Origin: Pseudomonas sp. Teo4
Lineage (GTDB): Bacteria; Pseudomonadota; Gammaproteobacteria; Pseudomonadales; Pseudomonadaceae
DNA length: 64,000 nt
NCBI RefSeq assembly: GCF_034387475.1
Contig: NZ_JAXCIL010000001.1
Location: 2,542,001 to 2,606,000 of the forward strand
Reading direction: 5' to 3'
The number at the start of each line of letters is the position of its first letter. Positions within the stretch are counted from its first letter, which is position 1. The position numbers and the translations under genes were made by a program. This document shows positions 8,071 to 37,671 of the stretch, piece after piece. The notes beneath the pieces are model-generated. The model had not been told where the DNA came from, made no database searches, and was given only the letters and a program-made list of their open reading frames with translations.

Positions 8071-9246
8071 TTGTCGATCTTCAGAAATCAAAAGGCCCTT
8101 GTAGAACTCGCCCTGATCCTTGGCGTGTTTTCGTTGTGTACGGGCGAATTCGCGGTAATGGGGTTGCTCTCTAACCTTTCCGCAGCTTTCACCATGCCCG
8201 AAACATCCGTCGCGCACCTGATCAGCGCTTACGCGCTGGGCGTGGTCATCGGTGCACCCATCATGGTATTTGTTGGCGTCTACCTAAAGAAACAGCATTT
8301 GATCCTGTTCCTGCTCGGGATCTACACCGTTTCAAACGCGCTCAGCCTGCTTGCACCGAACTACGAAACACTCTTGCTTTCACGCCTGATCGCGGGCTTC
8401 CCTCACGCTGCATACTTTGGCGTTGCCGCGACCATTGCTGCCTCGATGGCACCGTTTAACAAACGAGGAAAAGCGGTCAGTCGTATTTTGCTCGGCGTCA
8501 CTGCAGCCATTTTGCTTGGAGCACCAGGGGCGACATACCTGGGCCAGGCGCTCGGCTGGCGCTGGGTATTTGGCAGCATCACTGTCTTGAGCGTTCTGAG
8601 CTTGGTCTTGCTCTACCGCCACGCCCCTAACGTGGAGAATGAAGCTCGGATGGATTTCAAGGCGGAGATCGCATCGTTCAAGAGCACCCAGGTATGGCTG
8701 GCTCTGGCTATTGGGGCCATCGGCTTCTCGGGCATGTTCGGGGTCTACAGCTACCTTGCACCAACCGTCCTGCATGTCACCGGACTCAGTGAAAACTGGA
8801 TTGCGCCGATGCTTGCGGTCTTTGGCATCGGAACCATGATCGGCAACCTTGCCGGTGGCTGGCTATACGATAAATACAAATTCCTCGCTGTAAACCAAGT
8901 GATGATCTTCAGTGTTGTCGCACTGTTTGCATTCCCTTTGCTATCGAAGTCGATGACAGGGATCACGTTTGGCGCGCTAATGTTGGGCTGCATGGTGGCA
9001 CTCACTCCCGCCCTTCAAATGAGACTCATGGATGTCAGCAAACACGGTCAATCGTTGGTTGCTGCTTCGAACCATGCCGCCCTCAATTTTGCAAACGCGC
9101 TTGGCCCATGGATCTGTGGGCTCGCCATCAACGCCGGCTGGGGTTGGACTTCGACAGGCTACGTTGGTGCAGCAATGGCACTTGCAGGATGTCTGATTTA
9201 CGGGGTCGCCAGGATACTTGAGAAAAGGTCAACTGAAGCAGGGTAA
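8071..9246 (+). CDS. MFS transporter, DHA1 (AraJ/YdhP-like) family
   Basis: A 391-residue inner-membrane major facilitator protein with about 12 hydrophobic segments. The first reads LGVFSLCTGEFAVMGLL, with the G-E-F motif of AraJ/arabinose-efflux-like exporters. RLIAGFPHAAYFGVAA and the C-terminal SNHAALNFANALGPW are family signatures. I choose TTG at 8071, preceded by GAGG at 8 bp. A GTG at 8035 would add 12 residues. It strongly resembles the second MFS protein at 30829, with the same GEF, ISAYA.GVV.GAP and SNHAALN motifs, so the two are paralogues. Substrate unknown. Confidence 0.85.
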   Translation: MSIFRNQKALVELALILGVFSLCTGEFAVMGLLSNLSAAFTMPETSVAHLISAYALGVVIGAPIMVFVGVYLKKQHLILFLLGIYTVSNALSLLAPNYETLLLSRLIAGFPHAAYFGVAATIAASMAPFNKRGKAVSRILLGVTAAILLGAPGATYLGQALGWRWVFGSITVLSVLSLVLLYRHAPNVENEARMDFKAEIASFKSTQVWLALAIGAIGFSGMFGVYSYLAPTVLHVTGLSENWIAPMLAVFGIGTMIGNLAGGWLYDKYKFLAVNQVMIFSVVALFAFPLLSKSMTGITFGALMLGCMVALTPALQMRLMDVSKHGQSLVAASNHAALNFANALGPWICGLAINAGWGWTSTGYVGAAMALAGCLIYGVARILEKRSTEAG

Positions 9247-9264
9247 TAACCTGGGGATCACGAG

Positions 9265-9870
9265 TCATGATCTGAGGTGCAAGTCGACCAAGGCCGAGAT
9301 CTCATCGGCCTTGCTGCATCCCAAATCATGATCACCTCCAGACAGGATATGCAGCTCTGACACAGGTATTAATGAGGCAAGCTTGCGTCCAACTGCCACC
9401 GGGCTGTATGGGTCTTGGTCACCCCAAAGCAGTAAGGTTCGAGCGCGAAGACGACTGATTTCCTCACTGAGATCAGATGAGAAACGTGTAAACCAGTCAG
9501 GAAAAAAATACTGCCCCGCGAAATCAGCTCGCCAGTCCCGAGCACCAAAAGCGCTCATGTCCAGCCCCCCGGATGTGACTGCTAGTACCAAGTGAGAGAC
9601 CAGGCCTGGACGTGCATTGGCGGCTTGTACTGCAACCACACCACCCATGGATTGAGCGATCAGTGCGGTGGGTCTATCGATCAGTGATACAACTCTTTCG
9701 ACGACATCAGAAAGCCCCTGAATTCCTGGGGCATCGGGCACGCCTCCAAATCCCGGATACCCCAAAAAAATCTGCTTTACTGGACACTCCAGTGCGTCAG
9801 CCAAGGGTTGCCAGAACTCAACTCGTCCCGATGCCCCTGGCAAAAAAATCAGCTGCTCAATTCCGGACAT
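9265..9870 (-). CDS. Small alpha/beta-fold hydrolase
   Basis: A 201-residue alpha/beta hydrolase, shorter than the usual 250-300 residues because the cap region is reduced. Ser74 in the nucleophile elbow QSMGG, Asp151 or Asp153 in WGDQDPY and His181 in GGDHDL form the likely triad. LPGASGRVEFW near the N-terminus is the oxyanion-hole loop. The ribosome site AGGTGAG is 6 bp before the ATG. It is convergent with the MFS gene. It could be an esterase or lactonase of the neighbouring pathway, but the substrate cannot be told. Confidence 0.8.
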   Translation of the reverse strand: MSGIEQLIFLPGASGRVEFWQPLADALECPVKQIFLGYPGFGGVPDAPGIQGLSDVVERVVSLIDRPTALIAQSMGGVVAVQAANARPGLVSHLVLAVTSGGLDMSAFGARDWRADFAGQYFFPDWFTRFSSDLSEEISRLRARTLLLWGDQDPYSPVAVGRKLASLIPVSELHILSGGDHDLGCSKADEISALVDLHLRS

Positions 9871-35908: not shown

Positions 35909-36349
35909 TTACTTATAGACCTTGTCAATCCAGGCTTGCGCCACGGACGTAACTGATTTTCCACTTGCCGCATCGTGCCGTCCCGTCTCACCCACCTGGC
36001 TTGCCCCCAGATCGATTAGCTTTGCAACCACAACATCAATCGCATTGTTAAACTTAGCGTAAGTGCTATCACCCAACCCAAAGGCGTAGAAGTCCACATT
36101 GCTCAAATCAGGTTGTGCCGCTACCAAGTCAGCAAAAAATGGCGCGGTGGTTTCGGGCAGCTCTCCCTCACCGTAGGTGGAGGTGACAACTAACAGTTCA
36201 GTTACGGCAGAGAGCTCATCTGCGGAAACATCTTCCATAGACTTCACCTCAGCCACCACACCACGCAAACTAAGCGATGATGCAATATCATCTGCCGCCA
36301 TCTCGGCATTTCCACTTTCAGTACCAAAAACCACCAGAACATCAGACAT
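35909..36349 (-). CDS. Flavodoxin (cindoxin-like electron carrier for the P450)
   Basis: A 146-residue FMN flavodoxin. FGTESGNAE is the phosphate loop. TSTYGEGELPE and YAFGLGDSTYAKF form the isoalloxazine loops. It ends 15 bp before the P450 and starts 17 bp after the reductase stop. It replaces the usual 2Fe-2S ferredoxin as electron shuttle, as in the P450cin system. ATG 36349 with AAGG upstream is preferred over the in-frame start at 36370, which would overlap the reductase. Confidence 0.92.
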   Translation of the reverse strand: MSDVLVVFGTESGNAEMAADDIASSLSLRGVVAEVKSMEDVSADELSAVTELLVVTSTYGEGELPETTAPFFADLVAAQPDLSNVDFYAFGLGDSTYAKFNNAIDVVVAKLIDLGASQVGETGRHDAASGKSVTSVAQAWIDKVYK

Positions 36350-36366
36350 TTTCTTACCTTTTAGGA

Positions 36367-37671
36367 TCAAGAAACTTGGATAACAACTTCTTTAACCTTT
36401 GATGCACTATCAAAGGCATCGTCACCGCCCGCCACCCTGAGCATTCCACTAACATCAGTAATTTTTTTCCTGCATCGGCCTTGGCTCGCAGATCTCACTT
36501 CGTATTGATCAATCCGACGCCATCCTTGATGTTTAACAACACCGAGGGGTAACTCATGAGCAATTGAAGTAAGGCCAAGTTTCCTCGCCCCCAATAGCCC
36601 GGATTCGTAGTCCACTACAATCTGATCCGCAACTGCTTTAGCATCTTTTCTATTTTCAGCAACAGTGCCTTTAGGGCCTCGCTTGAGCCAGCCTACACGA
36701 TAAATGTTCATGCCCGTCAAATCCTCAGGCGGAATCGTAGACTGATTTTTCTTCCCATTATTGAAACCGATGGCAGTCACCACAGTTTCAAATTCCATTT
36801 TACGCCCTACTCCTGTAAGCCGATCCACGATCGTCAATTTCGCCAAACCATTTTCTTCATCAACTTCCTTTGGAACCGAATTAAACATCAAGTTGACTAG
36901 CAAGCTAGATTTGCAGTCTGTACTTGCTGGCTCGGGGACAGACTGGAGTAGCTTTGCTACATAGCCTTGTTCGTGTGCCCCAACACCATGAACTCGAATA
37001 CTCAGCCCTGGAAGACTTAGCAACTCAGCCATCATTGAAACATCACACTTTGCATCAGATGCACTTGATCTACTAATGAGGGTCAGAGACTCAACTCCCT
37101 GCGTATTCAGGGCTAGTCGAATCTCATCCGCGATATCTGAGCCAAGGAGATCGAAGTCCGTTTTTGCAACCATCCGAAGCACATCAACCGCAACATTCCC
37201 GCTGCCGATAACCGCGACATTTTTCCCGAGTTCCCTAACGGTGCCGTCCATAGCTTTAGGGAGATTAACTCTTGGATGCCCGTTCAACGCCTTAAGTACG
37301 CACCCAGCACCTACAACCGGCGCGAGAGGGTTAACAGGGATATCTAGAGAAGCATCATGATTCAGCCCAGTGGCCAGGACGACGATGTCGAAAGATTCGG
37401 TTAGTTTCGTATAGGCGATGTCTCGTCCAATGGTCACGTTCCCGCAGAACTCAACCCCACCTTTTTCGAACATACGCTCAAATTGCTGGATGACGGCCTT
37501 GCTGCCTTGATGATCTGCAGCAACCCCATAGCGTACCAAACCATAAGGTACGGGCAGGGCCTCAAAGATCGTGATCTGAGCCCCGTCCCATTTCTTCTGA
37601 AGGAACTGTGCAACGTAGCAGCCAGATGGGCCGCTTCCGACGATCGCTATGGTTGGAAACCTGGCTGACAT
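36367..37671 (-). CDS. Adrenodoxin/FprA-type NADPH-flavodoxin reductase
   Basis: A 434-residue FAD protein of the adrenodoxin reductase family. It has IVGSGPSGCYVAQFL near the N-terminus, EALPVPYGLVRYGVAADH (the typical P-Y-G-L-V-R-x-G-V-A-P-D-H-like block), NVAVIGSGNVAVDVLRM for NADPH and the C-terminal GWLKRGPKGTVAENRKDA. It passes electrons from NADPH to the flavodoxin of the next gene. It is the first gene of the operon, with GGAG 5 bp before the ATG. Cindoxin reductase is the nearest functional analogue by layout. Confidence 0.92.
   Translation of the reverse strand: MSARFPTIAIVGSGPSGCYVAQFLQKKWDGAQITIFEALPVPYGLVRYGVAADHQGSKAVIQQFERMFEKGGVEFCGNVTIGRDIAYTKLTESFDIVVLATGLNHDASLDIPVNPLAPVVGAGCVLKALNGHPRVNLPKAMDGTVRELGKNVAVIGSGNVAVDVLRMVAKTDFDLLGSDIADEIRLALNTQGVESLTLISRSSASDAKCDVSMMAELLSLPGLSIRVHGVGAHEQGYVAKLLQSVPEPASTDCKSSLLVNLMFNSVPKEVDEENGLAKLTIVDRLTGVGRKMEFETVVTAIGFNNGKKNQSTIPPEDLTGMNIYRVGWLKRGPKGTVAENRKDAKAVADQIVVDYESGLLGARKLGLTSIAHELPLGVVKHQGWRRIDQYEVRSASQGRCRKKITDVSGMLRVAGGDDAFDSASKVKEVVIQVS

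What the first reader, a model, noticed from the sequence alone, without database searches (positions are those of the whole stretch)
8071..37671. Coherent but undescribed-looking catabolic region built on a P450, a luciferase-like monooxygenase and flavin supply
The sequence shows a P450 system, SDRs, a luciferase-like flavin monooxygenase, a flavin reductase, RibH2 genes, ALDH, aminotransferase, FAH and lactonase-like hydrolases within 30 kb. Camphor degradation (P450cam, SDR/dehydrogenase, FMN diketocamphane monooxygenase plus Fred reductase, then lactone opening) and cineole degradation (P450cin plus flavodoxin) give the template. I infer a pathway that hydroxylates a cyclic natural product, oxidises the alcohol to a ketone, and uses the LLM protein as a Baeyer-Villiger oxygenase. 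The aminotransferase and three APC permeases hint at a nitrogen-containing substrate such as an alkaloid or amine. Strength: moderate for a pathway, low for the substrate.
Basis: partly seen in the sequence, partly recalled or inferred. Interest (0 to 1): 0.75.

Follow-up and report, generated by a model that had tools for sequence, protein, structure and literature searches.

The report
Unfused relative of explosive-degrading XplA P450
This Pseudomonas DNA carries a set of breakdown genes for an unknown, probably nitrogen-containing compound, including a P450 enzyme system that is an unfused cousin of the one soil bacteria use to destroy the explosive RDX, which could help find what that enzyme family originally consumed.

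Summary
The genes are there. The camphor/cineole template does not fit the P450. Its closest solved relative is XplA, the RDX-denitrating P450 (48% identity), here with a separate flavodoxin and an XplB-like reductase, in a same-strand run with an APC permease and a TetR regulator. Of 103 P450s aligned, all 89 of this family lack the Asp/Glu-Thr oxygen-activation pair and all 14 outgroup rows keep it. This loss, described as an XplA peculiarity, must therefore predate RDX. An APC permease lies within 8 kb of 46 of 63 family loci. In 4 of 4 Pseudomonas the operon has a sigma-54-like promoter and a conserved imperfect inverted repeat.

The luciferase-like enzyme belongs to a second module (aminotransferase, ALDH, FAH, SDR, 2-hydroxyacid dehydrogenase, flavin reductase, riboflavin gene, regulator) that recurs in Rhizobium and in part in actinomycetes. 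Both modules share a contig in five genomes of two phyla; each also occurs alone.

Most likely: permeases import a nitrogen-containing compound; the P450 (or a PhyH dioxygenase) starts attack; the LLM oxygenates a carbonyl intermediate; FAH, aminotransferase and ALDH finish. Substrate, order and the link between modules are inference.

The parts
36367..37671 (-). XplB-like FAD reductase (adrenodoxin-reductase/FprA type), first gene of the P450 operon (module A)
   Evidence: best solved matches FprA and adrenodoxin reductase; 37% to DN22 xplB
35909..36370 (-). separate flavodoxin (module A)
   Evidence: PF00258; 56% to the flavodoxin part of XplA
34712..35893 (-). XplA-family P450 (module A)
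   Evidence: XplA 410 bits; 48.1% to DN22 XplA; acid-alcohol pair replaced by Pro-Asn
32972..34438 (-). APC permease APC3 (module A); 273-base gap to the P450
32198..32890 (-). TetR-type regulator (module A)
   Evidence: PF00440
37771..37786 (-). sigma-54-like promoter TGGCAT-N5-TTGCT upstream of the P450 operon
   Evidence: 1 mismatch; same site in 4 of 4 Pseudomonas
37740..37759 (.). imperfect inverted repeat (14 of 20 self-complementary), conserved in 4 Pseudomonas, candidate TetR operator just downstream of the sigma-54 site
   Evidence: the automatic searches did not list it
10461..11228 (-). SDR1 (module B)
11287..12228 (-). D-2-hydroxyacid dehydrogenase (module B)
   Evidence: 56-63% homologues in R. 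leguminosarum and three actinomycetes
12307..13788 (-). APC permease APC1 (module B)
14018..15550 (-). aldehyde dehydrogenase (module B)
15880..17145 (+). class III aminotransferase (module B)
17256..18392 (+). luciferase-like monooxygenase, type II BVMO-like (module B)
18562..19446 (+). FAH-family hydrolase (module B)
23336..25276 (-). DhaR-like regulator without GAFTGA (module B)
25407..26156 (-). SDR2 (module B)
   Evidence: 73% in R. leguminosarum
26390..28516 (-). chemoreceptor (MCP) next to module B
   Evidence: 94% in P. mosselii, 74% in RIT288
28571..29035 (-). divergent lumazine-synthase-like protein
   Evidence: dN/dS 0.28
29559..30080 (+). flavin reductase (module B)
30157..30720 (+). 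lumazine synthase RibH2 (module B)
   Evidence: PRK12419, 227 bits against a cut-off of 160
19602..20540 (-). PhyH dioxygenase (module C)
   Evidence: 92-93% in ICMP22404 and RIT288
20727..21449 (+). LuxR-type regulator (module C)
21655..23103 (+). APC permease APC2 (module C)
8035..9246 (+). MFS transporter MFS1
9265..9870 (-). small alpha/beta hydrolase
30778..32016 (+). MFS transporter MFS2

Best explanation
A modular catabolic island for a nitrogen-containing natural compound. Module A (32198-37671) is a same-strand run, probably one operon: reductase, flavodoxin, P450, APC permease, TetR. It is an unfused XplAB-type electron chain, NAD(P)H to FAD reductase to flavodoxin to P450, that attacks a small amine or N-heterocycle imported by the permease. 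A sigma-54 promoter drives it and TetR probably binds just downstream. Module B (10461-19446 and 23336-30720) is a flavin-dependent lower pathway: flavin reductase and RibH2 supply reduced FMN, the LLM inserts oxygen into a carbonyl intermediate (Baeyer-Villiger type), FAH cleaves a carbon-carbon bond, the class III aminotransferase removes nitrogen, and ALDH, SDRs and the 2-hydroxyacid dehydrogenase process the fragments. Module C (PhyH-LuxR-APC2) is a further entry step. Shown: gene content, synteny, family membership, purifying selection, conserved promoter sequence. Inferred: substrate class, reaction order, and that A feeds B.
For: XplA kinship; XplB-like reductase; APC within 8 kb of the P450 in 46 of 63 family loci and in 0 of 17 outgroup loci, several of them short; sigma-54-like site and inverted repeat in 4 of 4 Pseudomonas; counterparts of ten module B genes together in R. 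leguminosarum; A and B on one contig in the window, P. mosselii, RIT288, N. vaccinii and Mycolicibacterium P9-22; FAH and 2-hydroxyacid dehydrogenase homologues within about 10 kb of the P450 in two actinomycetes and about 20 kb in a third; low dN/dS.
Against: ICMP22404 has A and C but no LLM match. G1240 has the LLM but no family P450 at E 1e-60. R. leguminosarum has B without the P450 in the 31 kb fetched. Only 4 of 29 P450-bearing genomes have a close LLM. GC3 differs: 0.45-0.49 in A, 0.57-0.68 in most of B. No clear sigma-54 site lies before the module B genes checked. N. vaccinii shows no aminotransferase in the stretch read. No activity is known for any protein here.
Confidence: 0.5

Rival explanations
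1. Independent neighbours: the XplA-type P450 operon and the LLM pathway are two unrelated catabolic cassettes in one hot spot, each with its own permease, regulator and substrate.
For: Each occurs without the other; GC3 differs; regulators differ; module A also lies beside an unrelated aromatic-type cluster in Burkholderia MS389; the own genome holds two more XplA-family P450 clusters 50-70 kb upstream of the window.
Against: Both share a contig in five genomes of two phyla although each is rare: LLM close orthologue in 2 and P450 in 3 of 298 Pseudomonas, own genome included.
Confidence: 0.35
2. The P450 is not an ordinary oxygenase: like XplA it reduces its substrate (for example a natural nitro or N-oxide compound) or detoxifies it, and does not feed growth.
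For: The Asp/Glu-Thr pair is absent in all 89 family rows; a review ties this loss in XplA to denitration in air (PMC8081977, passages).
Against: A Streptomyces branch lies with LigB, ALDH and FAH-family genes, which suggests ordinary aromatic catabolism. Asn or Asp stands at the Thr place in many members and might serve in oxygen activation. Permeases and catabolic genes are frequent neighbours.
Confidence: 0.2
3. A terpene pathway on the camphor or cineole plan: P450 hydroxylation, SDR oxidation, LLM lactonisation.
For: LLM best solved match is diketocamphane monooxygenase; the P450 uses a flavodoxin, as P450cin does (recalled).
Against: The P450 belongs to the XplA family, and P450cam or P450cin are not named among its 60 best solved matches; APC permeases and an aminotransferase point to nitrogen.
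Confidence: 0.05

Closest known systems
XplA/XplB RDX-degrading P450 system (Rhodococcus sp. DN22 plasmid p5; Gordonia sp. KTR9 pGKT2)
   Same: P450 48% identical, flavodoxin part 56%, reductase 37%; same three-part electron chain; Asp/Glu-Thr pair absent; in DN22 a permease annotated as amino acid permease lies upstream
   Different: Flavodoxin is a separate gene, not fused to the P450; gene order differs; the DN22 permease did not match the window's APC proteins; RDX activity unknown
Flavodoxin-P450 clusters on Klebsiella grimontii and Rhodococcus erythropolis R138 plasmids (uncharacterised)
   Same: Reductase, flavodoxin, P450, APC and TetR together
   Different: P450s 42-43% identical; in R138 the flavodoxin is fused; other neighbours differ
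Diketocamphane monooxygenases with flavin reductase Fred (camphor pathway)
   Same: LLM best solved match, 212 bits; two-component FMN chemistry expected
   Different: The camphor flavin reductase gene is chromosomal, apart from the CAM plasmid locus (PMC6352141, passages), while here it is in the cluster; surrounding genes and P450 family differ
R. leguminosarum pPR1 LLM cluster (uncharacterised)
   Same: Ten counterpart genes in one stretch: ALDH 61, aminotransferase 65, FAH 59, LLM 75, SDR2 73, RibH2 66, 2-hydroxyacid dehydrogenase 56, APC 54, flavin reductase 44, regulator 45%
   Different: No XplA-family P450 in the 31 kb fetched

Membership tests
XplA P450 family (CYP177 by recall) | Over 40% identity to XplA over the heme domain (the 40% rule is recalled) | tested here: met
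   48.1% over residues 2-392; XplA nested in the same 71-row clade, SH-aLRT 100, with a long-branch warning at the root
XplA P450 family (CYP177 by recall) | Asp/Glu-Thr pair missing in the I helix | tested here: met
   SGAPN in the window, VGHMA in XplA
XplA itself | Flavodoxin fused to the N-terminus of the P450 | tested here: not met
   separate gene 35909-36370; fused rows are not one clade
XplA/XplB system | Adrenodoxin-reductase-like partner reductase | tested here: met
XplA/XplB system | Reductive denitration of RDX | not testable with these tools
   needs enzyme assay
Camphor (P450cam) pathway | P450cam-type P450 with a 2Fe-2S ferredoxin partner (recalled) | tested here: not met
   XplA-family P450 with flavodoxin
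Cineole (P450cin) pathway | P450cin-type P450 with flavodoxin partner (recalled) | tested here: inconclusive
   flavodoxin present; P450 is XplA-family and P450cin is not named among the 60 best of 462 solved matches, but it was not aligned directly
Type II Baeyer-Villiger monooxygenases | Bac_luciferase fold sequence nearest to diketocamphane monooxygenase | tested here: met
   PF00296; 4uwm 212 bits, next 74
Type II Baeyer-Villiger monooxygenases | Ketone to ester or lactone conversion with FMNH2 | not testable with these tools
   needs enzyme assay
Sigma-54 (RpoN) promoters | GG and GC elements with N-10 spacing, consensus TGGCAC-N5-TTGCW | tested here: met
   1 mismatch in 4 of 4 Pseudomonas operons; such sites upstream of 4 of 213 ORFs, three of them this operon; whole-window counts are at chance
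Sigma-54 activators | GAFTGA motif in the regulator at 23336-25276 | tested here: not met
   motif search found none

The most novel reading that the evidence does not exclude
XplA did not acquire its oxygen-tolerant reductive chemistry for RDX. It was recruited from an old, widespread family of mostly flavodoxin-driven P450s that lack the oxygen-activating pair and travel with APC permeases, as tools for taking apart natural amines or nitrogen heterocycles. The Pseudomonas operon here is an unfused form of that ancestral kind, feeding an undescribed LLM pathway.
Probability: 0.35. Interest if true: 0.8.

Novelty: new variant of a known kind. Interest (0 to 1): 0.6.

Why it matters
XplA is used in engineered plants and microbes for RDX clean-up. 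[quoted passage not shown] Here the same loss runs through the whole family sampled, in proteobacteria and actinomycetes, so it must predate RDX. The conserved P450-flavodoxin-reductase-permease operons give testable systems for the open question of what XplA's ancestors metabolised. The LLM module is a second, rare but phylum-crossing pathway for which my searches found no description.

Tried and rejected
Camphor/cineole template: rejected for the P450. Trigonelline, tropane, caprolactam, ephedrine and rhizopine pathways were weighed from recall only; none fits all genes. Literature searches for a matching alkaloid, tropane, LLM-aminotransferase or RibH2-LLM cluster gave nothing that matched (listings only). 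Key XplA papers PMC4249041, PMC2788895 and PMC2040458 are not held and were not read, so unfused XplA relatives may already be in print there.

Shared sigma-54 control of both modules: no clear site before the module B genes checked, but one lies before the RIT288 regulator gene. Whole-window sigma-54 matches are at chance: 50 against 47.6 expected. Two automatic searches for inverted repeats did not list the candidate TetR operator; it was seen in the alignment and measured (14-16 of 20 positions self-complementary). NtrC half-sites and amine-type chemoreceptor motifs were looked at by eye and are too weak to claim. LLM in Burkholderiaceae and Rhizobiaceae samples: 0 of 349 and 0 of 297, though relatives exist there, so these samples show rarity at most. 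No structure prediction or fold search was run.

Rows dropped: L087 (stop in the extracted stretch), L098 and L099 (too short), L005 (copy of XplA); only 26 of 104 database proteins were used, and several rows are the same protein with other ends (P0008 and L081, P0046 and L041). In one search, 20 near-duplicate rows of 103 were left out. One search took presence from similarity to the window proteins, so other permease types were missed. In one search the ICMP22404 operon start was missed by the automatic ORF choice; its site is counted. In one search two genes gave no ratio, and dS above 1 makes several ratios rough.
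Full report
What is there. ORF listing and family scans confirm the genes named in the finding. The region 8035-37671 carries three separable modules plus two MFS transporters and a small alpha/beta hydrolase. Left of it lie glcDEF; right of it another catabolic cluster.

Module A, the P450 operon. 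On the minus strand the order is reductase, flavodoxin, P450, APC permease, TetR; gaps are -3, 15, 273 and 81 bases, so one operon is likely, not proven. The P450's best solved relative is XplA (410 bits), then a chain labelled CYP107B1 (282), then 151 bits. Against XplA of Rhodococcus DN22 it is 48.1% identical over residues 2-392. The DN22 reductase is 37% and the flavodoxin part of XplA 56% identical to the window proteins. DN22's cluster has an annotated amino acid permease, though it did not match the window's APC proteins. This is an XplAB-type chain with the flavodoxin as a separate gene.

The family. One scan of species genomes gave 72 loci. A tree of 83 rows puts XplA inside a clade of 71 (SH-aLRT 100); its nearest row is a 396-aa unfused protein, P0018, 66% identical. 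The tool warns of long branches at the root. Flavodoxin fusion needs at least three changes on the tree, and holding the 12 fused rows together is rejected (p-AU 1e-50), so XplA's fusion appears separate from that of the R. erythropolis R138 type. Of 103 aligned P450s, 89 lack the Asp/Glu-Thr pair and 14 outgroup rows keep it; parsimony gives one change. The window has Pro-Asn at these places, XplA Met-Ala, a Streptomyces branch Leu-Asp. A review states that XplA appears to have lost the motif and that this appears essential for denitration in air (PMC8081977, passages). The loss is therefore older than RDX. The own genome has three P450 matches to Pfam's model, and all three belong to this family.

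Neighbours of the family. An APC permease lies within 8 kb in 46 of 63 loci (26 of 39 outside Streptomyces), a reductase homologue is near in 28 and a TetR in 26. None of 17 outgroup loci, several of them short, showed an APC. This favours an amine- or amino-acid-like substrate.

Promoter. A sigma-54-like site with one mismatch lies 109-135 bases upstream of the reductase gene in the window, P. mosselii SC006, ICMP22404 and RIT288 (4 of 4), followed by a conserved imperfect inverted repeat, in otherwise diverged DNA. Sites this good lie upstream of 4 of 213 ORFs tested: three are these operons and one is the RIT288 regulator gene. Over the whole window such matches (up to 2 mismatches) are at chance level, so the case rests on conserved position. 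The regulator at 23336-25276 lacks GAFTGA and is probably not the activator.

Module B, the LLM pathway. The LLM's best solved relative is diketocamphane monooxygenase. Relatives of 60-93% identity occur in scattered proteobacteria and actinobacteria but are rare: 2 of 298 Pseudomonas genomes (own included), 0 of 349 and 0 of 297 in two proteobacterial families, 2 of 301 (centre included) in the family of N. vaccinii. In R. leguminosarum ten counterpart genes stand together. In Mycolicibacterium P9-22 the LLM (66%) lies with an aminotransferase (51%), a regulator (46%), a flavin reductase, RibBA and hydantoinase genes; a 2-hydroxyacid dehydrogenase (63%), ALDH and FAH (58%) follow. In N. vaccinii and P9-64 an FMO-like protein of about 550 aa stands between a LysR gene and the ALDH and FAH; the N. 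vaccinii one was identified by Pfam, the other by position and length. A riboflavin gene thus goes with the LLM in two phyla, a different one in each.

Are A and B one pathway? For: they share a contig in the window, P. mosselii, RIT288, N. vaccinii and P9-22, and FAH and 2-hydroxyacid dehydrogenase homologues lie near the P450 in three actinomycetes. Against: ICMP22404 has A and C but no LLM; G1240 has the LLM but no family P450; 4 of 29 P450-bearing genomes have a close LLM (8 of 29 at E 1e-60); composition differs. I put a joint pathway at a little over even.

Module C, PhyH-LuxR-APC2, adjoins module A in ICMP22404 and lies about 2.5 kb further on, behind an MFS gene, in RIT288 (PhyH 92-93%). 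It is absent from the 60 kb of P. mosselii read.

Selection. Between window and P. mosselii dN/dS is 0.00-0.15 for 18 of 21 genes, 0.28 for the lumazine-synthase-like gene, and undefined for SDR1 and TetR. The LLM has dN 0.000 with dS 0.28. The genes are maintained.

Mechanism proposed: import by APC permeases; attack by the P450 or the dioxygenase; SDR oxidation to a carbonyl; LLM oxygen insertion with FMNH2 from the flavin reductase; FAH carbon-carbon cleavage; transamination; aldehyde oxidation. The gene families are shown; order and substrate are inference.

Sources read: passages only of PMC8081977, PMC10820124, PMC9837850, PMC11035981, PMC4226467 and PMC6352141. CYP177 as XplA's family name, the 40% rule and P450cin's partner are recalled.

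Noticed in passing
G000:C1:2489966-2494882 and 2472187-2477738 (L024, L027): Two more XplA-family P450 clusters 47-70 kb upstream of the window: reductase-flavodoxin-P450-APC (43/59/42/39% identity) and APC-P450-TetR (40/38/43%). NAD(P) transhydrogenase genes follow the first; transhydrogenase genes also lie near the Sinorhizobium chiapasense P450.
   Followed up: partly
window 38360-45463: A further catabolic cluster (FMN reductase, cupin, ADH, PF06684 protein, FAH, MhpA-like hydroxylase, GntR regulator). Homologues of six of its genes (40-78%) lie beside the XplA-family P450 operon in Burkholderia sp. MS389, L033.
   Followed up: partly
window 993-7737: Xylose-isomerase-like, 6-phosphogluconate-dehydrogenase-like, GntR and glcDEF genes (glyoxylate/glycolate use by inference) directly abut the region. 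N. vaccinii has a fused FAD-oxidase and iron-sulfur protein next to its P450.
   Followed up: no
L056 and 23 other Streptomyces loci (L057-L078, L082): A 34-36% identical P450 branch, also without the Asp/Glu-Thr pair, and without a flavodoxin hit; in L056 it sits with LigB, acetoacetate-decarboxylase-like, ALDH and FAH-family genes and an APC.
   Followed up: no
window 28571-29035: A lumazine-synthase-like gene evolving faster than its neighbours (dN/dS 0.28) beside a normal RibH2.
   Followed up: no
window 54001-64000: GC rises to 63-66% from about 54 kb, against 47-59% before.
   Followed up: no
G000:C1:2534710-2536251: An APC permease 64% identical to APC3 lies about 6 kb upstream of the window start; a 64% match also lies in the P. 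mosselii region.
   Followed up: no
L007 7186-13950: A Klebsiella grimontii plasmid carries an XplA-like reductase-flavodoxin-P450 set with MFS, TetR and APC genes, a few kb from a CBASS cyclase gene.
   Followed up: no
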